Source of the DNA: Streptomyces tsukubensis
GTDB taxonomy: Bacteria > Actinomycetota > Actinomycetes > Streptomycetales > Streptomycetaceae
DNA: 64,000 nt
Reading direction: 5' to 3'
Assembly (NCBI RefSeq): GCF_009296025.1
Contig: NZ_CP045178.1
Coordinates: 3,162,001-3,226,000, forward strand
Below, piece after piece: positions 3,840 to 40,865 of this stretch. The notes beneath the pieces were generated by a model that saw nothing but the letters and a program-made list of their open reading frames with translations, was not told the DNA's origin and made no database searches. Both the position numbers and the translations under genes were made by a program. Position 1 is the stretch's first letter. Each line of letters starts with the position of its first letter.

Positions 3840-6139
3840 GCGACGGGCCTCCGCTCATCGGTACGCGGCCGCCTCGCGCCGGGTACATGCCGCTCCCCCG
3901 GCCTGCCCGCCGCCCCCAGCACCCCGGTGCGGCGCAGCTTCTGCCAGCGCAGCCGTCCGCCGGTGAGGGCGGTGATCCAGGACTGGAGCAGGACGACGTA
4001 CATGAGTTGCCGGTAGAGGATCTGCTGGAGCGGCAGAGAGATCAAATGGATCATACTTTCGCGGTCGAGCCGGAAGGCGTACGCGGCGCAGCCGGCCTGC
4101 ACCGCGAGGACCGCGAGCCACGCCACGACGGTCTTCGAGGTCGGTCCGAAGACCAGTCCGTAGACAAGGAAGATGTCGATCAGCGGGGCGAGCAGCGGGG
4201 CGAGGACCGTGAAGAGCGAGACGAGCGGCAGCCCGACCCGTCCGAACCGGCCCGACGCGCCCCGCTCGACGACCGCGCCCCGGTGCTTCCAGATGGCCTG
4301 CATCGTGCCGTAGCTCCAGCGGTAGCGCTGGGACCAGAGCTGGGCGACGCTCTCCGGCGCCTCGGTCCAGGCGCGGGCCTTCTCGGCGTAGACCACTCGC
4401 CAGCCGTCGCGGTGGAGCGCCATCGTGACGTCGGTGTCCTCGGCGAGAGTGTCGTCGCTGAGGCCGCCGACCCGGCGCAGCGCACCTCGCCTGAAGGCCC
4501 CCACGGCGCCGGGGATGGTCGGCATGCAGCGCAGGATGTCGTACATCCTGCGGTCGAGGTTGAACCCCATGACGTACTCGATGTGCTGCCAGGCCCCGAT
4601 GAGGGAGTCCCTGTTGCCGACCTTGGCGTTGCCCGCGACGGCGCCGACGCGCGGGTCACCGAAGGGCCGTACGAGTTCCCTGACGGTGGACGGCTCGAAG
4701 ACGGTGTCGCCGTCCATCATGACGACGATCTCGTGACTGGCGTGCGCGAGACCGTTGTTGAGCGCGGCCGGTTTGCCCGCGTTCGCCTGCCTGACCACGT
4801 GGACGTCCGGCAGACCGAGCTGTTCGACGAGGTCGGCCGTACCGTCGGTCGACCCGTCGTCGACGACGATCACTTCGAGCGGATGGTCACTGGCGGCGAG
4901 CGAGGTGACGGTGGAGACGACGCACTTGGCCTCGTTGTACGCGGGCACGAGCACCGTCACGGGCTCCGTCACCTCGCGGCCCCAGGTGAACCCCGGGCGC
5001 CGGACGCGCCGGGCGTGCACGGCCGAGAGCAGCAGCATCAGGCCGAACCGTACGAAGACCAGTACGCCGATCACCGCGAGGGCGCCGATGAGCACCGCGG
5101 CCACGTTGTCGGAGGCGGTGACCAGCCAGAGCCAGGCCCTGCCCTTCCACAGCTCAAGACCGGTGACCGGAGTGTGGGCGCTGGGCGCGTCGAGCGCTTC
5201 GGTGAGGTTGGCGAACCGGTAGCCGTCCTTCTGGAGCCCGGGGAGGAAGCGGTCGAGGGCCGCCACGGTCTGTGCCCTGTTCCCGCCCGAGTCGTGCATG
5301 AGGACGACGGCTCCCCTGCCGTCCTTGGGTGTGGCGTCGCGGATGATGGCGGCGACGCCGGGGCGCTGCCAGTCCTCGCTGTCGGTGTTGTTGACGACGG
5401 TCAGATAACCGCGGTCGCCGATGTACTTGGTGACCGGCCACGACTTGTTGTCCATGGCGTCGGCGAACGACGAGTAGGGCGGGCGGAACAGCGAGGTCCG
5501 AATTCCGGCGGCGCCCGCCAACGCGAGTTGGCTCTGCGCCAGTTCGCGGTCGATGCGCCCCTTCGACTGGTAGGAGAGGTCGGGGTGGTTGAAGGTGTGC
5601 ACCCCCACCTCGTGGCCCTCCCTGACCATGCGCCGTACGAGGGCGGGGTGGCGGGAGGTCATCGTGCCCGTGACGAAGAAGGTGGCGTGCGCGTGGTGCT
5701 TGGCCAGTACGTCGAGGACCTTGGGCGTCCACTTGGGGTCGGGCCCGTCGTCGAAGGTGAGGACGATCCGGTGGCGGGGTATGCGCAGCGACTTCTCCCG
5801 TCCGTCGCGGGTGTCGATGACGGGCCCGCCGTCGAGGATCTTCTCGGGTACGTGGCTGACGCTCGCCTCGGGCCTGACACGGTGGTCGGCGAGTATCTCG
5901 CTGTGCACGTAGCCGCGGAGCATGAGCATCGCGAGTATCGCGGCGAGGAAGAAGGCCGGCAGCAGGAAACGGAGCGGCAGACGGCGCCTGCGTGGCGCCC
6001 CCCTGGGGCGGGGCGTACCCCGGGTGTGGGGAGTGCCCCGGGTGCGGGGCGTACCACGGGTGCGGGGCGCGCCCCTCGGGCCGGGGGCGTGTGCGCCTGA
6101 ACCTGTACGGCCACGTGCTGACCGCGAACGGGATGTCAT
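3836..6139 (-). CDS. matB: bifunctional polysaccharide deacetylase / GT2 glycan synthase
   Basis: The 767-residue membrane protein has three parts. An Arg/Gly/Pro repeat-rich N-terminus is followed by a membrane helix (about 54-75). An extracytoplasmic NodB deacetylase domain follows, with TFDDGP (D130, D131) and HTFNH (H181, H185) metal/catalytic motifs. After a second helix (about 347-372) comes a processive GT2 domain from 393, with VVDDGS, DGD at 476-478 and QRYRW, then C-terminal helices. The architecture fits a synthase that extrudes and partly deacetylates an N-acetylhexosamine polymer, as proposed for MatB. Start 6139 has GGAGGGCAGCAG upstream. The open frame to 6229 lacks such support. 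Confidence 0.85.
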   Translation of the reverse strand: MTSRSRSARGRTGSGAHAPGPRGAPRTRGTPRTRGTPHTRGTPRPRGAPRRRRLPLRFLLPAFFLAAILAMLMLRGYVHSEILADHRVRPEASVSHVPEKILDGGPVIDTRDGREKSLRIPRHRIVLTFDDGPDPKWTPKVLDVLAKHHAHATFFVTGTMTSRHPALVRRMVREGHEVGVHTFNHPDLSYQSKGRIDRELAQSQLALAGAAGIRTSLFRPPYSSFADAMDNKSWPVTKYIGDRGYLTVVNNTDSEDWQRPGVAAIIRDATPKDGRGAVVLMHDSGGNRAQTVAALDRFLPGLQKDGYRFANLTEALDAPSAHTPVTGLELWKGRAWLWLVTASDNVAAVLIGALAVIGVLVFVRFGLMLLLSAVHARRVRRPGFTWGREVTEPVTVLVPAYNEAKCVVSTVTSLAASDHPLEVIVVDDGSTDGTADLVEQLGLPDVHVVRQANAGKPAALNNGLAHASHEIVVMMDGDTVFEPSTVRELVRPFGDPRVGAVAGNAKVGNRDSLIGAWQHIEYVMGFNLDRRMYDILRCMPTIPGAVGAFRRGALRRVGGLSDDTLAEDTDVTMALHRDGWRVVYAEKARAWTEAPESVAQLWSQRYRWSYGTMQAIWKHRGAVVERGASGRFGRVGLPLVSLFTVLAPLLAPLIDIFLVYGLVFGPTSKTVVAWLAVLAVQAGCAAYAFRLDRESMIHLISLPLQQILYRQLMYVVLLQSWITALTGGRLRWQKLRRTGVLGAAGRPGERHVPGARRPRTDERRPVA

Positions 6140-6439
6140 TGCCTGCTGCCCTCCAGGGCTGCGATCTCCGGCCCTTGGACCGGTTGACGAGGGAAAAAAC
6201 ACATGGCGGGCCGCACAGGCCGGCCGCACATGGCGGAACCCACTCGGCGGGAGTCACCCGACGTGAGTCACCCGACGGGACACGGGCGGGGGCCGCCACG
6301 GGTGACCGCGCCGCGAACACGGCGGGCCGCGCCGGTCACGCCAGGTGGGCGCGCGGGTCCGACGAAGCAGCTCTGGCCGGGTCGGGGCAAGCCGCACGGC
6401 GGGTCACACCGGGCGGGCCGGAGACGACCGGGCGCCGAA

Positions 6440-6560
6440 GCCGAAGCCGAAGCCAGGGCCGGGGCCGGGGACGAAGCCGGGGCCGGGGCCGGGGACGAAG
6501 CCGGGGCCGGGGCCGAAGCCGGGGACGAAGCCGGGGCCGGGGCCGAAGCCGGGGTCGGGG
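6440..6560. repeat. GC-rich degenerate tandem repeat
   Basis: GCCGGGGCCGGGGACGAA-type units recur with small variations in period. They give Pro/Ala/Ser or Gly/Ala/Glu low-complexity translations in every frame. I see no gene in it. Confidence 0.7.
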
Positions 6561-6686
6561 CCGAGTGCCACCCCAGCCACTCTCCGGCGACGGCCACGGC
6601 GCGGCGCGAGGCCGTGCGGAGCGAGACGGCACGCTCCGGCGGTGCCACGACGCGGGCCGGGGCGGTGCGGCGCCTCCCCACGCAGG

Positions 6687-6798
6687 ACCCATAGGCCGAG
6701 GGACCCATAGCCCGAGGAACCCGGAGGCCGTGGAACCCATAGGCCGTGGGACCCGAAGACCGAGGAACCCATAGGCCGAGGGACCCGAAGACCGAGGT
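6687..6798. repeat. 16-bp tandem repeat, seven copies
   Basis: Seven consecutive 16-bp units, consensus ACCCATAGGCCGAGGG, start at 6687, 6703, 6719, 6735, 6751, 6767 and 6783. Units differ at two to four positions; the ACCCGAAGACCGAGGA variant alternates with the consensus near the end. A period of 16 is not a multiple of three, so the array is not a coding repeat. Confidence 0.85.
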
Positions 6799-6900
6799 CA
6801 GACGGACCTGCCCGTCCCGACGCTCGCCCGCACGGCCGTCCGGGCCCGAGCCCCGCCCGAGCGCCGATCCCCGCCCGAGCGCCGAGCCCGCGCCCTGGCT

Positions 6901-7761
6901 CTACGTCCCCATGGCCTGCGGTGGCCCCTGCTGGCCTTCTGCCGGTGACGAGGGACCGGTGCCGGGCCCATCGGGTGGCGGGGACCCTGAACCGGACGGG
7001 CCCGGGTCGCCGGGGCCGTCACCGGGGCCTGTGCCGGGCGAAGTGGTCGGCCCTGATCCGCTCTGGGACGGCGCCGGGCCGGGCGCGGTGGAGCTGCCGC
7101 CACCCGGCTGGCCGGGCGGCTTCGGCCTGGTCGGGGCGCCGGGCCCCGGCCTGCCGCCCGCGGGGGTCGTGCCCCGCGCCTTCTTCCCCGACGACTTGCC
7201 CGGCCCCGCCGCGGCGATGTCCTCGGACGAGGGGCGCCCGCCCGCACCGTCCGTGGTGCGGGCCCCGGCCTCCGGGGCCGCGTCGTCCGCGTCGGAGCGC
7301 TTCGTTGAGCTGTGCGAAGGCAGCGGCGATGTCTCCACCTTGCCGGCCGGCCGGTCCTTCGCCGTGCTCGGCAACGGCAGCCATGGCGCGGATGAGTTGC
7401 CGGAAACCAACGTGGCCGCGATGACCACGGCGTAGATACCGCAGGCTATGCCGAGCAGCAGGCCTATCTTGCGGTAACGCCGACCGCGACGCCCCGAGGC
7501 GTCGACGAAGACCGGCTCGTCGGATCTGCTGCCGACAGCGGCCAACTCGCGGCCCCCCGCGGATACTGCGGATGCTGCGGATGCTGCGGATGCCGAGGAT
7601 CCCGAAGGATCCGCGGGGACGCCGGAAGCCGAAACCGAAGCCGAAGGTGACTCGCCCTTGGGCAGCTCCGCGGCCCGGCGGCCCAGGCCGTCGAGTTGAA
7701 TGGTGACTTCGGGTGGCTCGTGACTATGCCCTGACGCGACGTCTTCTCGCCAATTCTTCAC
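6901..7761 (-). CDS. single-pass membrane protein with Pro/Gly/Ser-rich exported tail
   Basis: I do not recognise a named family. The 286-residue protein has a cytoplasmic N-terminus of about 95 residues containing PEVTIQLDGLGRR. A basic stretch (RRGRRYRKIG) comes next, then one membrane helix (LLLGIACGIYAVVIAATLV). An outside tail of about 160 residues is very rich in Pro, Gly and Ser. The start is GTG 7761, which has GGGGGAG nine bases upstream. Frame-open starts at 7779 and 7839 lack such a site. A structural or cell-wall-associated role is plausible but not shown. Confidence 0.65.
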   Translation of the reverse strand: MKNWREDVASGHSHEPPEVTIQLDGLGRRAAELPKGESPSASVSASGVPADPSGSSASAASAASAVSAGGRELAAVGSRSDEPVFVDASGRRGRRYRKIGLLLGIACGIYAVVIAATLVSGNSSAPWLPLPSTAKDRPAGKVETSPLPSHSSTKRSDADDAAPEAGARTTDGAGGRPSSEDIAAAGPGKSSGKKARGTTPAGGRPGPGAPTRPKPPGQPGGGSSTAPGPAPSQSGSGPTTSPGTGPGDGPGDPGPSGSGSPPPDGPGTGPSSPAEGQQGPPQAMGT

Positions 7762-7903
7762 GCGTGCGCACTCCCCCATATTGCGAATTACGGGTGCGCT
7801 GACGACCCCGGCGCCTCGTCGGCCGGACCGGGCCCCCACCCGGTCCGAGCGCCCCCCTTGTCACACCGCGCCCGGGGCAAGAAAGTAGCGCAGCAGCGAA
7901 TGG

Positions 7904-8307
7904 TCAAACCACCGTTTCCGCCCGCATCATCATGATGAGTGCATCTTTAGCGGGAATCCATGCGTCCTTGGGCTTTTGCAGCCATACTCCGGCCGCCGAC
8001 AACTCGGCCGCCGTGGCGCGGAGCGCGTCTATGCCGGGATGGGTTCGGCCCCGGCGTAGATCCGCTCCCCGCGAGGGCGGCGACCGGCACCCTTTCGGGC
8101 CCCGCCAGCAGATGGTCGTCGGGCAGCAACGGGGCCATCGGCTCGTACCGCACGGGCTGTTGGGAAAGCCGCTCCCGTATCCCGGCCGCGAGCCCCGCGT
8201 ACCGGCCGAAGGCGGCATCTCTCGGCGCTGAGTTCGACGTGCCGTGTGGAGCGTACGAAGAGTTCGGCGCCCACCGCGCCGGGGCCACACCCGGACAGTG
8301 AGCACAT
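7904..8307 (-). pseudogene. frameshifted small gene, unknown family
   Basis: Three minus-strand frames each carry part of one plausible protein. From about 8307 the frame reads ELFVRSTRHVELSAER. From about 8215 a second frame reads FGRYAGLAAGIRERLSQQP and then PLLPDDHLLAGPERVPVAALAG. Around 8072 it returns to the first frame (ERIYAGAEPIP), and from about 8040 the third frame reads GIDALRATAAELSAAGVWLQ and ends DALIMMMRAETVV. Joining them gives about 130 coherent residues. The two downstream switches lie in short G or C runs (CGCGGGGAGC and ATCCCGGCAT) and fit one-base losses. The function is unknown, and the upstream start is uncertain. Confidence 0.55.
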
Positions 8308-8606
8308 GCCGAACCGACCGCACTACCGCGCGGATCCCATGCCCGCTACGCCGCACTACGCACTGTCGGGAGACCGCCTGGCGATCCTGCCGTACGAATC
8401 GGGCGGCGCACGGCACCTACCGTCCTCGCCCTCCCCACTGCCCCTCTCCGGGGGAGGCCGGGTCCGTGGGGAGCCGTACGAGAACCGCGGCCCCGCGCCG
8501 CTTCCGCCTCCGTAATCCGTACGCCGGGCTCTTCACCGTGCCAGGCGCCCGCGCGGCTCGTCGACCGGTACGCCCAGGCACGGAGCCGACCCGTTCACGA
8601 CATGAC
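8308..8606. other. spacer between broken gene and tmRNA terminator
   Basis: No convincing gene is visible. A short plus-strand frame starting at 8306 (MPNRPHYRADPMPATPHYAL) runs to 8515 but degenerates into Pro/Ser low complexity, so I do not call it. Confidence 0.4.
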
Positions 8607-8653
8607 GAAGGCGACGTGGTCCGCGCGATTTCTGCGCGGTCCACGTCGCCTTC
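8607..8653 (-). terminator. strong hairpin after tmRNA
   Basis: GAAGGCGACGTGGTCCGCGC (8607-8626) pairs with 8634-8653 across a 7-base loop, 19 of 20 positions matching. It lies 9 bp beyond the tmRNA 3' end, where it would end transcription. Confidence 0.8.
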
Positions 8654-8661
8654 ATTAACAG

Positions 8662-9047
8662 TGGAGATGGCGGGAATCGAACCCGCGTCCAACGGTGCGG
8701 AATCAGGGCTTCTCCGAGTGCAGTCCGCTGCGATTTTCTCGGCCCCGGAGATCACACGGACAAGTCTCCGACGGGCTCAGTCACTGTTTGATTTCCCACC
8801 ACTCCCCGTGACCGGGCGAGGTGGTTTAGTTCCCTAGCTGATGCCAGGATCCGGGTCGGGAACACCCCCGGGCTGACACTCCACGGAGTTACGCTAGCTG
8901 CTGATTAAGCAGCGAGAGCGAAGTTGGTGGAGGAATCGCGCTTAGAATTGGCGATTATTGTTTGCGACATATGGTTAACGAGATCATTGCCGCTTCCTCG
9001 ACTCGCTTCCCCTGCTTCGACATCCGCTGTCGAAACCGATCATCCCC
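8662..9047 (-). ncRNA. ssrA: transfer-messenger RNA (tmRNA, ssrA)
   Basis: The minus strand contains a full one-piece tmRNA. The 5' acceptor strand GGGGATG (9047-9041) pairs with CATCTCC near the 3' end (8669-8663). The T-arm reads GGGTTCGATTCCC, and the 5' region contains the conserved GATCGGTTTCGACAG. The tag reading frame runs from GCC at 8952 to TAA at 8907-8905 and encodes ANSKRDSSTNFALAA, ending in the usual FALAA degron. CCA is not encoded and would be added. tmRNA rescues stalled ribosomes with SmpB, whose gene lies 130 bp upstream on the same strand. Confidence 0.95.
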
Positions 9048-23000: not shown

Positions 23001-23918
23001 CCGCGTCAGTCCGAACCCCGTCAGTCCGAACCCCGTCAGTCCGACCCGCGTCAGTCAGATCCGCGTCAGTCAGACAGCCAGCGGTACGACCTCCGCACGC
23101 AGGGCACGAGACCCTACGGGGACGTTCCCGCACAGGGGCGGCCTTCGCGGGCCGCGCCCGCGCAGAGGACGCAGCAGGCCGAGGGCCGGGCAGGGGCGCC
23201 GTATCAGCAGGGCCGCGAGGAGGGGCACGGCGGCTCGCCCGCACGGGAGGGCGAACAGAGGGAGAGCCGCGGGGGCTACGGCCACTCGGTCCCCCGCGCC
23301 GATGTCCCCGCACAGGCGGGCCCGCACAGCGGCGACCTGGACTCACCGCCCAGCCGTACGATGCGGCTGCGCCCGGCGGCCTCGTCCCGCCCCGACCCGG
23401 GCCCCGCCCTTCCCCGTCTGGTCGTCCTGGTGGACGACCTCGACGCGCTGCTCGCGCCCGCGCTGGGGTCGCCGGGCCGGCCGGCCGCGGGTTCCGTCGT
23501 ACGCGCCCTGGAGGCGGTGGCCAGGGAGGGCGGCAGGCTGGGCGTGCATCTGATCGCGGCGGCCGGGCACGGTGAGCGCGTCGCGGCGACGGAGCTGTCG
23601 GGCCGCACGGCGCTGCGGATCACGCTGGACGCACCGTCCACGGCACCGGAGGACCCGGCGCCGGGTCGCGGAAGGCTGTGCCCGCGCGAGGAGAGGCCGA
23701 CGCCCTTCCAGGCGGGCAGGGTCACGGGCCGCATCCCGCGTACGGCGACGCTGCGCCCCACCGTCGTCCCGCTGGAGTGGGAACGCATGGGCGACCCCCC
23801 GGCCCGCCGCCCCGTCCGCGAACTGGGCAACGGCCCGACGGACTTGGCCCTCCTGGCCAGCGCCCTCGAACGCGCGGCCCGCTCGGTGGAGGCGACACCG
23901 GTACCGCCGCTGCTTTGA
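20002..23918 (+). pseudogene. FHA-domain FtsK/SpoIIIE-type ATPase, split by a -1 frameshift
   Basis: Read across the shift, this is about 1,305 residues. An N-terminal ubiquitin-like segment is followed by an FHA phosphothreonine-binding domain (IRIGRSAEADVTLDD, VSRAHCAV, DLGSTNGT). A Gly/Pro linker and FtsK/SpoIIIE-like P-loop segments come next. Walker A GPPGSGRTELL lies near 22390, and Walker B LVVLVDDLDALL near 23425. The first frame (from 20002) carries everything through the Walker A region and nominally ends at 23553. Walker B and the natural C-terminus are in the next frame (to 23918). The switch lies between about 22915 and 22957 in a G-rich stretch. ATG 20002 starts the conserved MQIRLTVLGPRSG. 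Type VII secretion-related or division-linked roles are possible. Confidence 0.75.
22978..23086. repeat. 15-bp coding repeat (D/E-P-R-Q-S)n
   Basis: About seven 15-bp units such as CCGCGTCAGTCCGAC encode (DPRQS/EPRQS)n in the restored frame of the FHA-ATPase gene. They sit just after the frameshift, in the linker that splits the ATPase core. Confidence 0.8.
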
Positions 23919-23964
23919 GGGGCGGTACGGCCGGTGTTTGGAGGGCGGGACCGGCGGTCCTTGA

Positions 23965-24125
23965 GGTGCGGGACCACCGGTCCTTGAGGTGCGGGACCAC
24001 CGGTCCTGGAGGTGCGGGACCACCGGTCCTGGAGGTGCGGGACCACCGGTCCTGGAGGTGCGGGACCACCGGTCCTGGAGGTGCGGGACCACCGGTCCTG
24101 GAGGTGCGGGACCACCGGTCCTGGA
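23965..24125. repeat. 23-bp tandem repeat with inner palindrome, seven copies
   Basis: Units start at 23965, 23988, 24011, 24034, 24057, 24080 and 24103, consensus GGTGCGGGACCACCGGTCCTGGA. Four to five copies are exact, and degenerate copies flank both sides. Each unit contains GGACC-ACC-GGTCC, a 5-bp hairpin, so the array is a row of small stem-loops 47 bp after the FHA-ATPase stop. It has no spacers and so is not CRISPR. Confidence 0.9.
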
Positions 24126-24175
24126 GGTGCGGCATCGGCGGTTCCGTGAACGGCGAGTATCGCCGGCCCCGTGGA

Positions 24176-28231: not shown

Positions 28232-28628
<397 letters not shown>

Positions 28629-29296
28629 TCACGCACTCAGCCGCACCACACGGTTCTCGTCCGGGGCCAGGGCGTCGACCTCGCGCGGGCGGCAGACCAC
28701 CGGCTCCGACAAGACGGTCCACAGGCGCGGGAACGAAGTTGGGCCAACGATCAACACATCCGTGTCTGGTCGCCGATCTGGAATTCGTTCACCCATTCCT
28801 TGGCCGCCGCGAGGCCGGGAGTGGTGCCGACCACCTCGTACACGAACCCGGTCCACTCCTCCAGGACGCGCGGCTCGTCGGGCCGGAGGTGGCCGGCTCC
28901 GATACGTGCGGACGCGTATCCGGCGAGCCCGCCTGCTCCGGTTCCCAGGTCGAGTACGGGAAGCCCCTCCCCGAGCCGGGCGAGGCGCAGCATCCGGATC
29001 ACTAGACTCGGCAACGTAGCAGACGACGTGGGCAGCCCCTCGGGCCGGTCGTCGGGCTTGGCGTGGTCGGCGTGGAGCGCCCCGACCTTGGTGACCAACG
29101 ACTGGTTGGCGTAGGCGGCTTCCGCCCACGCGTCCGGGGCGCTCGGCCCGTCCCTGAGTGTCCACACTCCCCGGTTCTCCTCCCACCAGCGGGGCACCAG
29201 CTCATGCCGGGGAAGTCCGGCCACCGGAGCCAGCCACCGCGACACCGGGTCGGTGATTTCGGTGGCGAGCCGTTCGGCGTGGGATTGCCATTCCAT
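28629..29296 (-). pseudogene. remnant of PIMT-like RiPP methyltransferase
   Basis: From ATG 29296 the frame encodes a protein resembling the N-terminal half of the tgmC methyltransferase at 30950. Both share the TSS-TLPSLV-RM motif, and it has a SAM-binding VLDLGTGAGGLAGYA. Straight after motif I the similarity stops, and unrelated sequence follows (RVLEEWTGFVYEVVGTTPGL). A frame switch near 28760 leads to VLIVGPTSFPRLWTVL and a stop at 28629. It looks like a methyltransferase with an internal deletion joined to another gene's tail. A working truncated protein (stop 28751, 181 residues) is unlikely, because most of the Rossmann core is missing. Confidence 0.6.
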
Positions 29297-29311
29297 GCTC
29301 CCGAACCTTCC

Positions 29312-29650
29312 TCACTCGTACGCGGGGTCACACGCTTCGCTCTCGGCGGGGGCGCAGTCCTCGCCGTCCTTGGACGGGTCGCAGTTGTCGGGTGTGCACG
29401 CCGTACGCCCGCCACGTGGCGGGATTCTCACAGCCAGCTCGGACCACGCGCTGCTCCGTACCAGATCACCGAGCCTGCTTTCCAGGACGTTGCCCGCCGG
29501 GAAGTCGCGGGAGAGCACGCAGCCGGCGAGGTCACCGTTGGGGAGGATGGCCGCCCGTCCTCCCCAACCACACATACGGAGCGTGTCACAGTCGCCACGC
29601 TCCGCGACTTCACGGCACTGGTCAGCACCATGAGTGGGTATACATTCCGC
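29312..29650 (-). pseudogene. C-terminal fragment of a radical SAM/SPASM protein
   Basis: The minus-strand frame (closed upstream by a stop at 29653) encodes about 112 residues with a SPASM-type cysteine pattern. It reads ADQCREVAERGDCDTLRMCG, then WGGRAAILPNGDLAGCVLSR. Next come GNVLESRLGDLVRSSAW and a Cys-rich end (CTPDNCDPSKDGEDC, EACDPAYE). SPASM domains bind extra Fe-S clusters in peptide-modifying radical SAM enzymes. The radical SAM core with CxxxCxxC is absent; the graspetide operon begins where it should be. The methyltransferase remnant follows 15 bp downstream, so the two were probably one operon. Confidence 0.65.
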
Positions 29651-29702
29651 TCAAGCGGGGCAGATCGGCTTCCGCTTGATCCAGTGGGGAAAGGGTGAGC
29701 AC

Positions 29703-29969
29703 ATGGCTACACCGACCACTCAGGCACCGTGGGCGATGGGGCTGGTCACCGACCGGCTGTACGTCGGCCCACCGACGTACGCCGCGGTGGTGCTGGACGG
29801 GGCCACGCAGACCGCCCGCTACACCGACGCTGCCGGGCAGACCGTGGAGATGGGCAAGCACGGCACGTCGAAGACGACCGGCACGGCGTCGATGTCCGGG
29901 GGCGGGGACGGGCAGGGCCCGCAGCCGCAGACTCAGGACGACCACACCACCGACTACGAGTCGGACTGA
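29703..29969 (+). CDS. tgmA: ATP-grasp-modified RiPP precursor peptide
   Basis: The 88-residue precursor has the leader pattern of the TgmA family: PWAMGLVTDRLYV, a Tyr-Asp-Ala segment and GQTVEMGKHG. The C-terminal core from about residue 55 runs TSKTTGTASMSGGGDGQG, then PQPQTQDDHTTDYESD. Hydroxyl donors (T55, S56, T58, T59, T61, S63, S65) lie before a Gly/Pro/Gln stretch holding D69-G70, and acidic acceptors (D79, D80, D84, E86, D88) come after. ATP-grasp ligases join such side chains as esters. The start 29703 has AAAGGGTGAG upstream; the open frame to 29634 is a run-on. The ligase gene begins 3 bp after the stop. Confidence 0.9.
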   Translation: MATPTTQAPWAMGLVTDRLYVGPPTYAAVVLDGATQTARYTDAAGQTVEMGKHGTSKTTGTASMSGGGDGQGPQPQTQDDHTTDYESD

Positions 29970-29972
29970 CCG

Positions 29973-30953
29973 GTGGCCTCCACCGTCCTGGTCGTCACCG
30001 CGCTGGAAGACGTCACCGCGGACTGGGTCATCGCCGCACTGAACGAGCGTGAGGTGCCCGTCGTCCGCGTCGACCCCGCCGACATTGGCACCGGGCTGAC
30101 CTTCGAGGCCCGCATCGAGGCGGAGGCGCCTTCGTGGGGCGGGCGACTGCGTACGGCGAGCCGGGAGGTGGATCTGGGGGAGGTGGCGGCGGTCTACTAC
30201 CGGCGCCCCACCTCCTACGCCACCCGGTATCAGCATCTTCCTCCACAGCAGCGGAAGTTCGCCGCCGCTGAGGCGAGGCATGGGCTCGGCGGCATCCTGA
30301 ACACCCTGCACGGCTCCGTCTACGTCAATCACCCGGCAGCAGTGACCCGCGCAGACTTCAAGCCCGCCCAGTTGCAGAGGTTCACCGAGCTCGGGCTGTC
30401 GATCCCGCCGACCCTGGTCACCAACGATGTCGAGGCGGCCCGCAAGTTCGCCGCCCAACACGGCCCCGTCATCTACAAGACGTTCCGTGGCCTGCCTCGG
30501 GACGAAGACGGGCACACCGGCGCGATCTGGGCCCAGCGTATTGATCCGGGGACCTTCGACGACTCCCTCGCGGTGACCGCCCACCTGTTCCAGGCCGAGA
30601 TCCCCAAAACCGGGGACGTGCGGGTCACCGTGGTCGGCCACCGTGTCTTCGCCCAGCAGATCGCCGCCCCGGATGGCGCCTTGGACTGGCGCCGCGGCAA
30701 CTGGGACGACCTGATCCACGCTCCCATCACCGTGCCTGCCTCCATCGAGGCCGCGCTGCATATTTACCTGGCCTCGTTCGGCCTGGTCTTCGGCTGCTTC
30801 GACTTCGCTCTGACCGGCGACGGCGATGCCCCGGAACACTGGACAGCGATCGAGTGCAACAGCAACGGGCAGTGGGGCTGGCTGCCCGACGCGCGGACCA
30901 TCACCGAGGCGTTCGCCGACATCCTGAGCAGAAAGGAGGCGGGGCCGAGATGA
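29973..30953 (+). CDS. tgmB: ATP-grasp ribosomal peptide maturase (graspetide ligase)
   Basis: The 326-residue protein is an MvdD/TgmB-type ATP-grasp ligase. It phosphorylates core Asp/Glu carboxylates and couples them to Ser/Thr (ester) or Lys (amide). Visible parts are the N-terminal pre-ATP-grasp domain (VLVVTALEDVTADWVIAAL, VYYRRPTSY), the ATP lysine region (GPVIYKTFRGLPRDEDG), VRVTVVGHRVFAQQI, and the Mg-binding end IECNSNGQWGWLPDA. GTG 29973 follows the precursor stop by 3 bp, implying coupling. It overlaps the methyltransferase start by 4 bp. Confidence 0.93.
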   Translation: MASTVLVVTALEDVTADWVIAALNEREVPVVRVDPADIGTGLTFEARIEAEAPSWGGRLRTASREVDLGEVAAVYYRRPTSYATRYQHLPPQQRKFAAAEARHGLGGILNTLHGSVYVNHPAAVTRADFKPAQLQRFTELGLSIPPTLVTNDVEAARKFAAQHGPVIYKTFRGLPRDEDGHTGAIWAQRIDPGTFDDSLAVTAHLFQAEIPKTGDVRVTVVGHRVFAQQIAAPDGALDWRRGNWDDLIHAPITVPASIEAALHIYLASFGLVFGCFDFALTGDGDAPEHWTAIECNSNGQWGWLPDARTITEAFADILSRKEAGPR

Positions 30954-32152
30954 GCATGCCCGCCGACCTTGAGACCGACTCCGTCCGCCTGCGCGAGGCG
31001 ATGACCAAGGGCCTCGCCGCCGACGGCGTCCTCGCCGATCCGGCCTGGCGTCAAGCCGTCGAGGTGGTGCCCAGGCACCGGTTCGTGCCCGGCTTCTACC
31101 TGCCCGCCGACGATCGTGACGAGCAGGGCCTGACGGTGTGGGAGCCGGTCACCGCCGCACTCGATCATGACCGCTGGCTGGCCACCGCATACTCCGACAC
31201 CACGCTGATCACGCAGTTCGACGGTGAGGATCCCGACTGGAAGGCCCCCGTCGTACGCCACGGCGGGGCCCCGACGTCGTCCTCCACGCTGCCCTCACTC
31301 GTCGTGCGCATGTGGGCGGACGCCGAGATCGCCGAGGGACACACGGTGCTGGAGATCGGCACCGGGACCGGCTACTCGACCGCGCTCGTGTGCGAACGTC
31401 TCGGCGGCTCCGCCGATGTCACGTCGATCGAGGTCGACGGTGGCCGGCTGGAGCAGGCGGCGAGCACGCTGTACGGCCTGGGCTACACCCCGACCCTGGC
31501 GGTGGCGGACGGCCTGTACGGGTACTGGCCCGAGACGAAGTTCGACCGGATCGTGGCCGCCTGCTCCTTCCGCGCGGTGCCGCCCGCTCTGCTCGGGCAA
31601 GTACGGCCGGGCGGGAAGGTCCTGCTCCCCCTGTCGGGCTGGCTCTACGGATACGCCCGCGTCCTGCTGACGGTGGCCGAGGACGGCACCGCCGAGGGCC
31701 AGTTGCTCGGCGGCACCGTGTCGTTCATGTCAGCGCGTACGCACGCGGCTCCAGTGTTCGGCAACCCCGCCCACTGGGCCGCGGGCCTGGCCGACAAGCC
31801 CCGGGCCACCCCGCACAGCCCGGAGCGCATCACGGCCGCCACCGAAGAAGCGTTCCACCTGCGGTTCCTCGCCCAGAGCGCGGTGCCCGACGCGCAGATG
31901 ACGACCGTGGGAGAGGTGGTGCACCTGGTCGACGTCGTCACCGGCTCCGCCGCCACCCTCACCCCCGCAAGCGACGGATGGGCCGTGCGCGAGGGTGGCC
32001 CGGTGAGGCTGTGGGAACGGATCGAGCGCGTCCTGGACGCCTACGACACGGCCGGCCGGCCGGGACCGGAGACGTTCACGCTGCACGTCTCCGGCGGCGG
32101 GCAGCACCTGCGGCATCCGCGGATGCCCGGTCTGACGCTGCCGAGGCTGTGA
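30950..32152 (+). CDS. tgmC: PIMT-like methyltransferase of the ATP-grasp peptide system
   Basis: The 400-residue protein has a protein-L-isoaspartate O-methyltransferase fold: GAPTSSSTLPSLVVRM before SAM motif I (HTVLEIGTGTGYSTALVC), then VTSIEVDGGRLEQA. A C-terminal extension of about 170 residues is typical of the TgmC family. In fuscimiditide-type pathways such an enzyme methylates a core Asp after cyclisation, and attack by the backbone amide gives an aspartimide. AAAGGAGG lies upstream of ATG 30950. The ATGA overlap with tgmB makes this a tight three-gene operon. No transporter or peptidase gene follows. Confidence 0.93.
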   Translation: MSMPADLETDSVRLREAMTKGLAADGVLADPAWRQAVEVVPRHRFVPGFYLPADDRDEQGLTVWEPVTAALDHDRWLATAYSDTTLITQFDGEDPDWKAPVVRHGGAPTSSSTLPSLVVRMWADAEIAEGHTVLEIGTGTGYSTALVCERLGGSADVTSIEVDGGRLEQAASTLYGLGYTPTLAVADGLYGYWPETKFDRIVAACSFRAVPPALLGQVRPGGKVLLPLSGWLYGYARVLLTVAEDGTAEGQLLGGTVSFMSARTHAAPVFGNPAHWAAGLADKPRATPHSPERITAATEEAFHLRFLAQSAVPDAQMTTVGEVVHLVDVVTGSAATLTPASDGWAVREGGPVRLWERIERVLDAYDTAGRPGPETFTLHVSGGGQHLRHPRMPGLTLPRL

Positions 32153-32194
32153 CACGGGCCGTACGTTTCAGGCGTGCCCCCAACGGGGCGATAC

Positions 32195-32280
32195 GGCGGG
32201 TCTGGAACCTCGGGTTCTTTTTGTCCCGGACCATGAACTCACCGGTGGCCGCCGTCGCGTACGGGGCACTGCCACCGTAA
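32195..32280 (-). pseudogene. DUF397 gene scrap (partial duplicate)
   Basis: Minus-strand translation gives ATAATGEFMVRDKKNPR, clearly related to AAATGEFVVRDSKNPG in the intact DUF397 gene next door. The nucleotides match closely over about 45 bp. It has no start or Trp-Xaa-Lys N-terminus. It looks like a tail left by duplication or recombination. Confidence 0.65.
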
Positions 32281-32328: not shown

Positions 32329-32541
32329 TCAGCTGTGCGACTTGGCGAACGCCACGAAACCGGCCCACCCTTCGCGGCTCAGTGAGAGCACGGGCCCGCC
32401 CGGGTTCTTGCTGTCCCGGACCACGAACTCACCGGTGGCCGCCGCGTACTCCGGCGCCCACTCGATGCACTGGCCGCCTTCGCCACCGCTGTACGTGCTC
32501 TTGACCCATCGCAGGGGTCGGATGCCGTGCGTGTCGCTCAT
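32329..32541 (-). CDS. DUF397 protein
   Basis: The 70-residue protein has the DUF397 layout: LRWVKSTYSGGEGGQCIEWA, then VVRDSKNPGGPVLSLSREGW and a short helix. These proteins pair with XRE regulators in many copies per Streptomyces genome, as in the WhiJ/AbaA-type clusters. They may act with the regulator as a toxin/antitoxin-like or signalling pair. It overlaps the XRE gene by 4 bp, so they are coexpressed. Confidence 0.92.
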   Translation of the reverse strand: MSDTHGIRPLRWVKSTYSGGEGGQCIEWAPEYAAATGEFVVRDSKNPGGPVLSLSREGWAGFVAFAKSHS

Positions 32542-33368
32542 CTGGCGTACTCCTCCGCAATCTCACGAATCAGGGCCAGGGACTCTTCTGGATCACGCGC
32601 CGCAGCCCGCAGACGCTCATACGTCATACGCGCGTCGTCCACAGCCTTCACGGAGTCGGTCACGTGCCCCTGCCCCCTGGTCTCCGAATACAGGACTGTT
32701 GCCCCGTCGTCTGGTGTTAGCAGGGTAAACGGTAGAGACGCGGCAGGGGCACCCTCTTTAAAGCGGAGAACTTGTAGCGTGATGTGGGGGTTTCCCGCCG
32801 CTGAAGCAAGGTGGCGGAGCTGGTCAGCCATGACGGCCCGACCGCCTACTTCTGTGCGCAACGTCGCCTCATGCAAGATCACCCACAACAAGGGCGGGGC
32901 TTCCCGCTCCATGACCTCACGCCTGGCCAACCGTGCTTCCACCCTGGCCTTGATCTGTTCGTCGGTCTCGCGCGGATGCGTGGCCCGAAAGGTGGCTTCC
33001 GCGTACTCCCGCGTCTGCAACATGCCCATGATCAGGGCGTTGGAGTAGTCCTCAATCCGGGTGGCTTGCCTCTCCAGATTGATGTACGGGACAAACCAAC
33101 CGGGGTGTCCGCGCTCGCTGATCCTCACCAGCAGCCGGGCGAACCAGCCGGACGTGTTGAAGAACCGGTCGCAACCGTCGGCAAAGGCGGGGGACGGCAT
33201 CGCCTTGCCGTTCTTGACCTTGCTGACGTACGGCTCCTTGTAGCCAGTGAAGTCCGCCAGTTCCCGCTGACTGGCCCCCTTGTGGATCAGCGCCGCCTCC
33301 AGTTCCCGGCCGAACCACTCAAGACCGTTCACGGGCTCCGTTTCCGCCCCACGTGATCGCTCGTTCAT
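32538..33368 (-). CDS. XRE-family regulator with DUF5753 domain (WhiJ-like)
   Basis: The 276-residue protein has an N-terminal XRE helix-turn-helix (GASQRELADFTGYKEPYVSKV, about 29-49). A DUF5753 ligand/partner domain follows (HPGWFVPYINLERQATRIED, MGMLQTREYAEA, LLWVILHEATLRTEVG). This is the standard partner of DUF397 proteins. The start taken is ATG 33368, with GGGGA about 13 bases upstream; the frame is open from a TTG at 33431. It is divergent from the small gene at 33497. Confidence 0.9.
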   Translation of the reverse strand: MNERSRGAETEPVNGLEWFGRELEAALIHKGASQRELADFTGYKEPYVSKVKNGKAMPSPAFADGCDRFFNTSGWFARLLVRISERGHPGWFVPYINLERQATRIEDYSNALIMGMLQTREYAEATFRATHPRETDEQIKARVEARLARREVMEREAPPLLWVILHEATLRTEVGGRAVMADQLRHLASAAGNPHITLQVLRFKEGAPAASLPFTLLTPDDGATVLYSETRGQGHVTDSVKAVDDARMTYERLRAAARDPEESLALIREIAEEYAR

Positions 33369-33496
33369 GCGTTCAAGTCCCCGTTTTTCCAAGTCGGTTG
33401 GAAAGCCTCCAGACCTATTGAGCATAGGCAAGAAGGACGACGCTTATGTGAGCAAGCGGCAACACAGAGCGACGAAGAGCGAGGGCGCGGCGGACC

Positions 33497-33721: not shown

Positions 33722-34002
<281 letters not shown>

Positions 34003-38853: not shown

Positions 38854-40865
38854 GGCGCGGGTCGGCCCTTCGGCGCTGTCTCGGGTGCGGGTGCGGGTGC
38901 GGCTGCGTGTGGGGGTGGGGGTACGGGTGCGGGGGCTGGGTCCGGGCTGAGGCGGAGACTTCCCTTGCCCTTGGGGTGCGGCCTCGCGGGCCCGGCCGGC
39001 GTGTGGCGGGCGGGGCGTGCGGCGGCGGGATCTCGTGGCCGGTGCTCGTCGGAGGGCGAGCCTTCGGGAAGTGCGTCACCGGTAAGGCGCGTCGTCCGGG
39101 AGTGCCGGGAGACTGTCGCGCCAGGCGTACGGGGGCCTGCGGGGAAGCCCGTTGCCGAGGGACCGCCGCCCGGGGAGCCACTCCCCGAGGGGCCGTCGTC
39201 CGAGGGGCCGCGCCCCGAGGAGCCACCGTCCGAGAAGCCACTCCCCGAGGGACCGTCGTCCGAGGGGCCGCGCCCCGAGGAGCCACCGTCCGAGAAGCCA
39301 CTCCCCGAGGGACCGTCGTCCGAGGGGCCGCGCCCCGAGGAGCCACCGTCCGAGAAGCCACTCCCCGAGGAGCCACCGTCCGAGAAGCCACGCCCAGTGG
39401 AGCCGCCGTCGGGGGAGCCGTTTTCCGTGGCGCCGGGGGTGCTCCGCCGCCCCCGGCGGGCGAACCGCATGAGCCTGCCGCGCAGCGCCCGTTCCGGGCG
39501 GCGCAGACCGGAGACAATCCGGCCGTGCCCTGGATGGCGGGCGCCGACGGGCATGCGGTAGTCGGCGTACGAGCCCGAGGCGAGCGCCCGGTGCCCGGCC
39601 CCCGGCCCACCCGGCGGCGGCTCGAACCCCTCGGGCAGATGCGCCCAGTACAGCGCGGCGGCGCCCCGGAAGAAGTCCCGCCGATCCGCCACCCGGATCC
39701 GGTGCGGATCACCGAGCACGGCGAGGAGGTGGGCGGCCATGTGAGGGAAGAGCCGGTCGGAGTCGGAGCAGGAGGGAACGGCTTCCTCGCGGGAGGCGAC
39801 GGCTTCCCCGGCGAGGGGGGCTCGGGATGTCGGGTTCCGGTTCGCGCTCGGGTTCGGATTCGGGTTCCGGGTCGAGGTCGATTTCGAGGCCGAGATCGGG
39901 GTCGAGGTCGGGGTCGGGGGCGAGGTCGGGGGCGAGGTCGGGGTCGAGGTCGGGGGCGAGGTCGGGCGCGAACGGTCACCGGCCCCTACGGCGGAAGCGG
40001 CGACCTGGCCGGCGGAGAGCACTCCACCAGACACCGGGCCGGAGCCGCCGGAGTCGGCGTCGCACACCCCACCAGCCACCGCACCAGGACCCGCGTCGCA
40101 CACCCCACCAACCACCGGAACCGGGTCTGTGCCAGTTCCCCCAGCGATCACCACCGCCGATGTCCCCGGGGCACCCCCCGCCCGTGCCGCCTCCATCAAC
40201 TCCGCGTACCGCCGCAACACCACGAAGTGCGCGCTGCCCCTGGCCATGGACAGGAGGCCGCCCCGCCGCTCGCGCCAACGCACGCAGACCCGGTCCAGGG
40301 TGGCGGTCCTGTCTCCGGCGCGCAGGGTGGCGAGGTGGACGGGGACCACGTCCTCGTAAGGGCCCTCGGGTGCGAAGCGCAGTGCGTGCGCGGACCAGAA
40401 CTCGCGGCGGAAGACGCGGTTCCAGGCCGCGGGGGTCAGGGCCAGCGGGTCGCCCGTGAAGTCGTCCGTGACGGTTCGCACCGTCTCCCACCAGTCGATC
40501 CTGTCGTGTCCGAAGGCCAGCACGTCGGGGTCGTCCTCGGCTCGCAGGGCCTCGTCGATCGCGGTGAGGGCGCCGGGCAGCAGAGTGTCGTCCCCGTCGA
40601 GGAAGAGCAGGTAGTCGCCGCGGGCCTCGGCCGCACCGGTGTTCCTGGCCGCCCCCGTACCGCGCCGCGCCGCGTGGCGCAGCAGCCGTACCCGGTCGTC
40701 GCGCTCGGCGTACTCCGCGGCGATGGCGGCCCCCGCGTCGGGGGACGCGTCGTCAACGACGGTCAGCTCGAAGTCGGCGTACGACTGGGCGAGGACGGAT
40801 TCCAGGCATTCCCGCAGGTAACCCTGGACCCGGTGGGCGGGGACGACAATCGTGAAGCGCGACAT
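38850..40865 (-). CDS. GT2 glycosyltransferase with long repeat-rich tail
   Basis: The N-terminal 250 residues are a GT2 domain: FTIVVPAHRVQGYLRECLES, VVDDASPD, and DxD in LFLDGDDTLLPGA. It is closely related to the N-terminus of the TagF fusion at 51707 but lacks the polymerase domain. Residues 270-330 are Ser/Pro/Thr low complexity. Near the end there is a (DGGSSGRGPSDDGPSGSGFS)n repeat from a 60-bp tandem repeat. It probably primes or decorates a wall polymer with the GT-C partner. Confidence 0.82.
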   Translation of the reverse strand: MSRFTIVVPAHRVQGYLRECLESVLAQSYADFELTVVDDASPDAGAAIAAEYAERDDRVRLLRHAARRGTGAARNTGAAEARGDYLLFLDGDDTLLPGALTAIDEALRAEDDPDVLAFGHDRIDWWETVRTVTDDFTGDPLALTPAAWNRVFRREFWSAHALRFAPEGPYEDVVPVHLATLRAGDRTATLDRVCVRWRERRGGLLSMARGSAHFVVLRRYAELMEAARAGGAPGTSAVVIAGGTGTDPVPVVGGVCDAGPGAVAGGVCDADSGGSGPVSGGVLSAGQVAASAVGAGDRSRPTSPPTSTPTSPPTSPPTPTSTPISASKSTSTRNPNPNPSANRNPTSRAPLAGEAVASREEAVPSCSDSDRLFPHMAAHLLAVLGDPHRIRVADRRDFFRGAAALYWAHLPEGFEPPPGGPGAGHRALASGSYADYRMPVGARHPGHGRIVSGLRRPERALRGRLMRFARRGRRSTPGATENGSPDGGSTGRGFSDGGSSGSGFSDGGSSGRGPSDDGPSGSGFSDGGSSGRGPSDDGPSGSGFSDGGSSGRGPSDDGPSGSGSPGGGPSATGFPAGPRTPGATVSRHSRTTRLTGDALPEGSPSDEHRPRDPAAARPARHTPAGPARPHPKGKGSLRLSPDPAPAPVPPPPHAAAPAPAPETAPKGRPAP
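39181..39360. repeat. 60-bp tandem repeat inside GT2 gene, three copies
   Basis: Three 60-bp units starting at 39181, 39241 and 39301 differ at one base in total; a 30-bp partial unit follows. Each codes for 20 residues on the minus strand. Confidence 0.95.

What the first reader, a model, noticed from the sequence alone, without database searches (positions are those of the whole stretch)
29703..32152. Complete imiditide-type graspetide operon (precursor, ATP-grasp ligase, PIMT-like methyltransferase)
Three tightly coupled genes (3-bp gap, then 4-bp overlap) encode a TgmA-type precursor, a TgmB ATP-grasp ligase and a TgmC methyltransferase. Systems of this kind make macrolactone-linked peptides, and those with a PIMT partner, such as fuscimiditide, add an aspartimide. 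The core here does not match any named product I can recall, so the peptide may be new. No transporter or protease gene lies next to it.
Basis: partly seen in the sequence, partly recalled or inferred. Interest (0 to 1): 0.88.

Follow-up and report, generated by a model that had tools for sequence, protein, structure and literature searches.

The report
Streptomyces graspetide operon, conserved but uncharacterised
A three-gene Streptomyces operon carries everything expected for making a small ring-tied peptide of a known family, with a peptide sequence that is much the same in many species but whose product I could not find described in the papers I could read.

Summary
In detail: 29703-32152 holds a TgmA precursor (88 aa), a TgmB ATP-grasp ligase and a TgmC PIMT-like methyltransferase, with a 3-bp gap and a 4-bp overlap; each passes its curated cut-off. 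The proper class is 'group 13 graspetide' or 'graspimiditide'; 'imiditide' is the PIMT-only class. The peptide is not peculiar to this genome: precursors of this subtype occur in 27 of 392 Streptomyces genomes, with a core that changes little. The core differs from the SsfA type; I found no described product of this subtype. New here: (1) co-loss of T55 and D88 and conserved T61, S/T63, S65, D79, D80, D84 suggest nested esters T55-D88, T61-D84, S63-D80, S65-D79 around an aspartimide at D69; only the first pair has co-loss support. (2) Relatives carry a divergent HTH-TPR regulator tied to this subtype (13 of 16 places in 392 genomes), which the window has lost to a broken radical-SAM/methyltransferase fragment. 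(3) The operon sits in a ~20.6-kb accessory segment. Chemistry is inferred, not shown. Ordinary class, some useful specifics.

The parts
29703..29969 (+). tgmA precursor, 88 aa: leader about 1-52 with P9-W10 motif; core about 53-88 (HGTSKTTGTASMSGGGDGQGPQPQTQDDHTTDYESD). Cleavage site not known.
   Evidence: TIGR04186 and PF14408; 284 homologues at E<=1e-3, 120 listed
29859..29966 (+). core peptide codons 53-88; predicted donors T55, T61, S63, S65, predicted aspartimide site D69 (followed by G70), predicted acceptors D79, D80, D84, D88
   Evidence: conservation, co-loss of T55 and D88; the pairs are inference
29973..30953 (+). tgmB ATP-grasp ligase (GTG start, 326 aa), predicted to form the side-chain esters
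   Evidence: TIGR04187 395.1 bits, cut-off 350; solved ATP-grasp relatives incl. 5ig8, AMdnB 7m4s, CdnC 7mgv; no deviation at 63 near-invariant positions over 74 other sequences
30950..32152 (+). tgmC PIMT-like O-methyltransferase (400 aa) with C-terminal domain, predicted to methylate D69 and so give the aspartimide
   Evidence: TIGR04188 419.4 bits, cut-off 380; AlphaFold pLDDT 81, pTM 0.80, best Foldseek match T. maritima PIMT 1dl5 over 384-387 columns, TM 0.47 by query
29574..29702 (+). upstream region shared with relatives; inverted repeat CGTGTC-N6-GCCACG (CGTGGC-N6-GCCACG in 8 of 14 relatives aligned) and, by eye, a ribosome-binding sequence GGGGAAAGGG
   Evidence: role as operator inferred
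28769..28901 (-). surviving tail of the DUF6087 gene that accompanies the regulator gene in relatives; fused in frame to the PAMT fragment
   Evidence: 94.7% DNA identity to L011; PF19565 27.6 bits, cut-off 27.1, residues 133-171 of the fused frame
28910..29575 (-). broken radical-SAM/SPASM C-terminus (29312-29575) plus 5' part of a PAMT gene (28910-29297), in the place where relatives have the HTH-TPR regulator gene
   Evidence: SPASM PF13186 24 bits, cut-off 21.5; TIGR04188 77.9 bits over residues 10-135 only
32329..33431 (-). DUF397 (32329-32541) and HTH/DUF5753 regulator (32538-33431) pair, convergent with the operon; possible present-day regulator, not shown
   Evidence: 30 DUF5753 matches in the genome; co-occurrence of such pairs with group 13 is published (PMC13097080 section 7)

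Best explanation
It is an intact group 13 graspetide (graspimiditide) operon of a Streptomyces. TgmB recognises the leader (P9-W10 motif) and esterifies C-terminal Asp side chains with upstream Thr/Ser hydroxyls. I predict four nested esters, S65-D79, S63-D80, T61-D84 and T55-D88, giving a stem with a 13-residue loop. TgmC then methylates D69 in that loop, and the ester collapses to an aspartimide that can hydrolyse to isoAsp/Asp. The leader is removed by an enzyme encoded elsewhere. In many relatives a divergent HTH-TPR regulator probably controls the operon; in this genome that gene has been replaced by a broken radical-SAM/methyltransferase fragment, so control must come from elsewhere (the convergent DUF397/DUF5753 pair is one candidate). 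Shown: genes, family membership, conservation, absence of the regulator. Inferred: all chemistry, ring pattern (about 0.4 likely as stated), regulation, and any activity of the peptide.
For: Family cut-offs met by all three proteins. The ligase matches solved ATP-grasp ligases, AMdnB and CdnC among them, and deviates at none of 63 near-invariant positions over 74 other sequences, duplicates not removed. The methyltransferase model matches 1dl5 along nearly its whole length, including the C-terminal domain that PMC10787088 reports for RiPP PIMT homologues (passages). Leader P9 and W10 in 57 of 57 distinct precursors. Among 72 distinct cores chosen for Asp at 69, 79 and 80: S65 72, S/T63 72, S/T61 71, G70 71, D84 70; hydroxyl at 55 and Asp at 88: both 63, only hydroxyl 2, only Asp 0, neither 7. 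Published relatives have Thr-Asp esters in a stem-loop, the methylated Asp in the loop and Gly after it (PMC13001092 section 9). Core dN/dS 0.20 against 0.33 in leader residues 9-50.
Against: No chemistry was tested. The pattern uses two Ser donors, while the four characterised graspimiditides have Thr-Asp links (ThfB did accept Thr-to-Ser changes, PMC12291112 passages); the loop would be 13 residues against 10-12 reported. Only T55-D88 has co-loss support, and from few events: parsimony gives 2 changes for T55 and 4 for D88. The two discordant cores are L050, which has a stop at codon 86, and L167, whose T55 alignment is doubtful. The pair T61-D84 has none: the one core without a hydroxyl at 61 (L199, Met) keeps D84, and the two without D84 (L202, L204, which have D83) keep T61. 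T58 is S/T in 60 of 72 and could be a donor, though 7 cores with another residue there keep D79, D80, D84 and D88.
Confidence: 0.85

Rival explanations
1. The product is the same kind of peptide as an already characterised Streptomyces graspimiditide (SsfA(BM) or albusimiditide), so nothing about it is unstudied.
For: Same three-gene order and same NCBI families; two characterised graspimiditides are from Streptomyces (PMC13001092 section 9); S. albidoflavus, the present name of albusimiditide's source species, also encodes a window-type precursor (P0121).
Against: SsfA residue numbers in PMC10787088 (section 6: fragment 63-97, G77-T78, D81-G82-N83, S89, last 12 residues with four Asp and no Glu) fit the L155/L161 precursors (core GTSTGTSPSTGTSPDGNGTTQDSDTGSDSDQ), a different subfamily whose leaders mostly read PWG...R(M/L)xxYP. 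Albusimiditide ring sizes as I recall them from its abstract (22, 46, 22, 44 atoms; from no call) do not fit the window core by my formula; its sequence was not held.
Confidence: 0.15
2. The operon is a relic in this genome: transferred, cut off from its regulator, and no longer making a peptide.
For: Regulator gene gone, DUF6087 cut, foreign gene fragments next door; the segment is absent at the same site in 2 of 7 relatives examined; some relatives look broken or split (L032, L043, L062, L064; L050 stop in the core). The window leader has rare residues, for example Y20 where 54 of 57 have P and G13 where 50 of 57 have R.
Against: All three reading frames are intact with normal spacing, no deviation at 63 near-invariant ligase positions, and the window precursor keeps every core residue that is invariant among the 57. 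The upstream block is not clearly more decayed than in other loci: 3 of 24 invariant columns changed, tied with three of the 14 others; the two nearest relatives, L011 and L012, have 0.
Confidence: 0.15
3. The mature peptide is a signal sensed by the divergent HTH-TPR regulator of the related loci, in the manner of peptide-sensing RRNPP regulators; in this genome the sender remains without its receptor.
Confidence: 0.15

Closest known systems
Group 13 graspetides / graspimiditides (fuscimiditide, amycolimiditide, albusimiditide, SsfA(BM))
   Same: Precursor + ATP-grasp ligase + PIMT homologue with C-terminal domain; hydroxyl donors before an Asp-Gly, Asp acceptors at the C-terminus
   Different: Core sequence and predicted spacing (donors 55/61/63/65, acceptors 79/80/84/88; 13-residue loop) differ from fuscimiditide (T3-D22, T7-D18, 10-residue loop) and from the SsfA type; leader PWA where the cousins mostly have PWG and fuscimiditide RPFG. 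Amycolimiditide and albusimiditide sequences were not read.
Imiditides / type I pamtides
   Same: PIMT homologue acting on an Asp of a ribosomal peptide
   Different: Those clusters hold precursor and PIMT, and the peptide is presumably linear (PMC13001092 passages); here an ATP-grasp ligase is present
Microviridin ligases (MvdC/MvdD)
   Same: ATP-grasp peptide maturase family
   Different: MvdD and MvdC models match at 133 and 132 bits, far under their cut-offs of 475 and 425; PIMT partner; different core
HTH-DUF5753/DUF397 regulator pairs of Actinomycetota
   Same: The pair beside the operon (32329-33431) is of this kind, and such pairs co-occur with group 13 (PMC13097080 section 7)
   Different: One of 30 DUF5753 matches in the genome; here convergent and downstream, whereas 11 of 50 loci have an HTH/DUF5753 gene within 2.5 kb upstream

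Membership tests
Group 13 graspetide / graspimiditide | Precursor of the GRASP_targ / Actino_peptide family | tested here: met
   TIGR04186 67 bits (cut-off 25), PF14408 75.2 bits (25)
Group 13 graspetide / graspimiditide | ATP-grasp peptide maturase next to it | tested here: met
   TIGR04187 395.1 bits, cut-off 350
Group 13 graspetide / graspimiditide | PIMT homologue with extra C-terminal domain in the operon | tested here: met
   TIGR04188 419.4 bits, cut-off 380; PCMT match ends at residue 229 of 400; nearly whole-length match to 1dl5
Group 13 graspetide / graspimiditide | Conserved leader motif: Pro followed by hydrophobic residues | tested here: met
   P9 and W10 in 57 of 57 distinct precursors; motif described in PMC8939145 section 5
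Group 13 graspetide / graspimiditide | Asp (mostly Asp-Gly) between N-terminal hydroxyl donors and C-terminal Asp acceptors | tested here: met
   sequence
Group 13 graspetide / graspimiditide | Side-chain ester crosslinks actually formed | not testable with these tools
   needs expression and mass spectrometry
Group 13 graspetide / graspimiditide | Aspartimide (or isoAsp) actually formed at the loop Asp | not testable with these tools
   needs expression and mass spectrometry
Imiditide / type I pamtide | PIMT homologue is the only, class-defining modifying enzyme | tested here: not met
   ATP-grasp ligase in the same operon
Microviridin (MvdC/MvdD) | Ligase above the MvdC or MvdD cut-off | tested here: not met
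   133.3 of 475 (MvdD) and 131.5 of 425 bits (MvdC)
SsfA-type graspimiditide | Core and residue numbering as reported for SsfA | tested here: not met
   L155/L161 fit the reported numbering, the window core does not; SsfA's own sequence was not seen
Albusimiditide subtype | Core sequence of albusimiditide | not tested
   paper not held; ring sizes only recalled
RRNPP peptide-sensing regulators (for the regulator of related loci) | N-terminal HTH and TPR domain that binds a peptide | tested here: inconclusive
   HTH and TPR fold supported, peptide binding not tested; no Pfam match up to E 0.1

The most novel reading that the evidence does not exclude
A widespread Streptomyces graspimiditide subtype is a signalling peptide whose dedicated receptor is the divergent HTH-TPR regulator; the island moves between strains, and the window shows a sender that has lost its receptor.
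Probability: 0.12. Interest if true: 0.75.

Novelty: new member of a known kind. Interest (0 to 1): 0.35.

Why it matters
The passages on graspimiditides that I read give no biological role for them. A subtype with a core that hardly changes, no dedicated exporter seen, and a regulator that in the sampled Streptomyces genomes lies mostly beside it (13 of 16 places) is a good place to ask what these peptides do. The co-loss of T55 and D88, with the order of the other conserved residues, gives one concrete ring pattern to test where sequence alone had not given connectivity (PMC8939145 section 5).

Tried and rejected
Albusimiditide identity: I first took the S. albidoflavus window-type precursor for albusimiditide; set aside after comparing ring sizes (recalled) and after finding that SsfA's published numbering fits another subfamily. 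The papers that would settle it are not held (all returned 'not held').

Operator decay: tested whether the window's upstream block has decayed after regulator loss; inconclusive, tied with three of the 14 other loci.

Solved structure of the core: no PDB match up to E 10 for 35 residues of the core. Own-genome ortholog of the regulator: none near the 73-86% seen between loci; best 34-37%. A six-term literature search for a divergent TPR regulator gave 0 papers; 'graspetide, Streptomyces, quorum, signal' gave 1 review, of which I saw the listing only. The search for TIGR04186-8/tgm names listed 20 of 218 papers, all off the subject by title.

Right flank: no matching neighbour region recognised in relatives. 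The first count of the divergent regulator was 21 of 50; it includes a 28% match at L030, so I use 20 of 50 (18 nearly full length, L027 and L028 partial). In one search the L029 row is cut short by my own 140-residue limit, not by the gene (one search shows it whole).
Full report
OBSERVATION. Precursor 29703-29969, ligase 29973-30953, methyltransferase 30950-32152, all on +. NCBIfam places them as TIGR04186 (67 bits, cut-off 25), TIGR04187 (395.1, cut-off 350) and TIGR04188 (419.4, cut-off 380); Pfam gives PF14408, PF21068 and PF01135. The whole genome (8.63 Mb, two contigs) has a single TIGR04187 match and 13 TIGR04188 matches, of which only this one passes the cut-off. More distant matches lie in Actinoallomurus, Streptomonospora, Yinghuangia, Actinomadura, Nonomuraea and others.

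CLASS. An ATP-grasp ligase plus a PIMT homologue is the mark of group 13 graspetides, for which the name graspimiditides is used (PMC13001092 section 9; PMC12291112 passages). Imiditides proper have only precursor and PIMT (PMC13001092 passages). The ligase's solved relatives are ATP-grasp proteins, AMdnB and CdnC among them (9bou, 5ig8, 7m4s, 5ig9, 7mgv, 7drm). The methyltransferase model (pLDDT 81, pTM 0.80) matches T. maritima PIMT 1dl5 along 384-387 alignment columns with TM 0.47 by query, which includes the extra C-terminal domain reported for RiPP PIMT homologues (PMC10787088 passages).

HOW COMMON. A protein search gave 284 homologues at E<=1e-3; the 120 listed, among them the window's own entry P0010, are 76-100% identical over 88-100% of the query. 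Of these 120, 107 matched my core pattern and 13 did not (for instance Ser or another residue in it); the most frequent core appears 25 times. In 392 Streptomyces genomes, 120 have some precursor match at E<=1e-3, and 27 (29 places, 88 bits or more, 62-100% identical) have the window type. Three plasmid records match over residues 1-53 (two opened), and some copies lie near chromosome ends, for example at both ends in G087. The distribution is patchy while the core changes little. Counting codon changes over 57 distinct precursor genes (67 before removing duplicates; gapped matches and those not reaching residue 88 were left out), dN/dS is 0.20 in the core (51-88) and 0.33 in leader 9-50; both are under purifying selection, the core more so. 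The acceptor arm alone (76-88) gives 0.25, the donor arm 0.22, the loop 0.17.

NOT THE SsfA TYPE. Other Streptomyces precursors found (about 35-50% identical) mostly have a PWG leader and a different core (18 read). The numbering reported for SsfA (PMC10787088 section 6) fits the L155/L161 precursors: a 35-residue GluC fragment, G77-T78, D81-G82-N83, S89, and a last 12 residues with four Asp and no Glu. The window core does not fit. I could not read the albusimiditide paper, so whether that peptide is of the window type stays open; the ring sizes I recall from its abstract do not fit. The published surveys (962, 1326 and 1432 clusters; PMC13001092 section 9) very likely include this subtype, but I could not check.

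RING PATTERN (inference). Searches of 394 class-level and 341 family-level genomes gave more distant precursors. From 123 distinct rows I kept the 72 distinct cores with Asp at 69, 79 and 80; the others, mostly SsfA-like or partial, were dropped. In these, S65 is invariant, 63 is S/T in 72 of 72, 61 in 71 of 72, D84 present in 70 of 72. Hydroxyl at 55 and Asp at 88 go together: both 63, hydroxyl only 2 (L050, which has a stop at codon 86, and L167, doubtfully aligned), Asp only 0, neither 7 (Fisher 2.4e-8, not corrected for kinship). On a ligase tree the changes are few: 2 for T55 and 4 for D88 (three rows had no ligase long enough). Seven cores with an aligned residue other than S/T at 58 keep all four acceptors. 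Against the rest of the pattern: L199 has Met at 61 and keeps D84, while L202 and L204 lack D84 (they have D83) and keep T61. The simplest nested pattern is S65-D79, S63-D80, T61-D84, T55-D88, with rings of 47 (loop), 19, 28 and 40 atoms and the aspartimide at D69. PMC8939145 (section 5) describes the core diversity in its largest precursor cluster and says that for most of its new precursors connectivity could not be predicted.

NEIGHBOURHOOD. In annotated plasmid copies a 'Tat pathway signal protein' and a DUF6087 gene run divergently from tgmA. Of 50 loci with tgmA and tgmB, 20 have this protein at 73-100% identity (two partial, and one of the 20 is the query's own locus) and 23 the DUF6087 gene; 11 others have an HTH/DUF5753 gene within 2.5 kb upstream. 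The protein has no Pfam match. Its model is weak overall (pLDDT 65, pTM 0.51) but the N-terminal HTH is confident, and the rest is helical repeat; Foldseek and VIA-align give TPR proteins, RapI, RapH and NprR among them, though unrelated TPR proteins rank higher. At E<=1e-100 it occurs in 15 of 392 Streptomyces genomes, 16 places, and 13 of these are directly beside a window-type tgmA; exceptions are G192, G122 and G375. The intergenic region has a conserved block with an inverted repeat. I infer a dedicated regulator. PMC13097080 (section 7) reports DUF397/DUF5753 pairs with group 13, and PMC8939145 (section 7) TPR proteins of unclear role in ATP-grasp loci; neither section mentions this divergent regulator or DUF6087.

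WHAT HAPPENED IN THE WINDOW. The window shares 29574-32165 with L011 (93.8% DNA) and 28769-28901 with the DUF6087 tail (94.7%), but in between it has 672 bp of other sequence where L011 has about 1.55 kb with the regulator. That piece is the C-terminus of a SPASM protein and the start of a PAMT gene, the latter read into the DUF6087 tail as one frame. The regulator is not elsewhere in the genome at comparable identity (best 34-37%). In S. graminilatus (L012) the same island sits between a radical-SAM gene without its tail and a PAMT gene (frames read by eye), so pieces of the same two systems lie together in both. In 2 of 7 relatives examined (L209, L211) window 28230 is followed after 226 and 145 bp by window 48852 and 48826: the operon lies in a segment of about 20.6 kb that is absent there. 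L205 has 3.4 kb of other DNA between the same points, L208 part of the segment's right side, and L206, L207 and L210 no clear right junction within 16 kb.

FUNCTION. Nothing here shows an activity. Signal, antibiotic and other effector remain possible; the tie to a TPR-type regulator makes a signal worth testing, and I give it about 0.12-0.15. Overall the finding is a sound, ordinary member of a known class, with a testable ring pattern and a regulator association that I did not find described in the sections and searches named.

Noticed in passing
window 28910-29575 (-): Broken radical-SAM/SPASM plus PAMT gene pair beside the operon; the PAMT start is 75% identical in protein (residues 1-137) to an apparently intact PAMT elsewhere in the genome (L005, C2:4548186).
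   Followed up: partly
L012 (S. graminilatus) 2600-8900: The graspetide island lies between a radical-SAM gene that lacks its C-terminal tail and a PAMT gene, with a second short piece of the radical-SAM gene on the PAMT side (by eye).
   Followed up: partly
window 28230-48830: About 20.6 kb absent at the same site in 2 of 7 relatives examined (L209, L211); partly present in L208.
   Followed up: partly
P0010 (database entry equal to the window precursor from M12): The entry starts at M12 and so lacks the P9-W10 leader motif; the length of most relatives and a likely ribosome-binding sequence support the ATG at 29703.
   Followed up: yes
window 32211-32253 and 32401-32443: Two nearly identical stretches of 43 bases; the second codes for part of the DUF397 protein on the minus strand, the first looks like a leftover copy (by eye).
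   Followed up: no
window 28349-28424, 33839-33879: Six-base tandem repeats on both sides of the operon region (12.7 and 6.8 copies).
   Followed up: no
window 23899-24132 and 39155-39419: Longer tandem arrays with 23-base (10.1 copies) and 60-base (4.3 copies) units.
   Followed up: no
own genome C2:2653562-2654497 (L004): Second-best TIGR04188 match (262.7 bits, below cut-off) close to a gene that looks by eye like an FHA-domain protein, as in the FHA-VWA clusters labelled in PMC10787088 (passages).
   Followed up: no
G087 C1:720-983 and C1:9238148-9238411: Window-type precursor at both chromosome ends, each with the divergent regulator beside it, both regulator frames with one TAG.
   Followed up: no
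L050 (Yinghuangia soli) precursor: Stop at codon 86, where 51 of 57 precursors have Glu, followed in frame by the usual Ser-Asp; makes it a discordant row in the co-loss count.
   Followed up: no
L096, L157, L153, L143 and similar: Several further precursor subtypes in Streptomyces with other donor and acceptor spacings.
   Followed up: no
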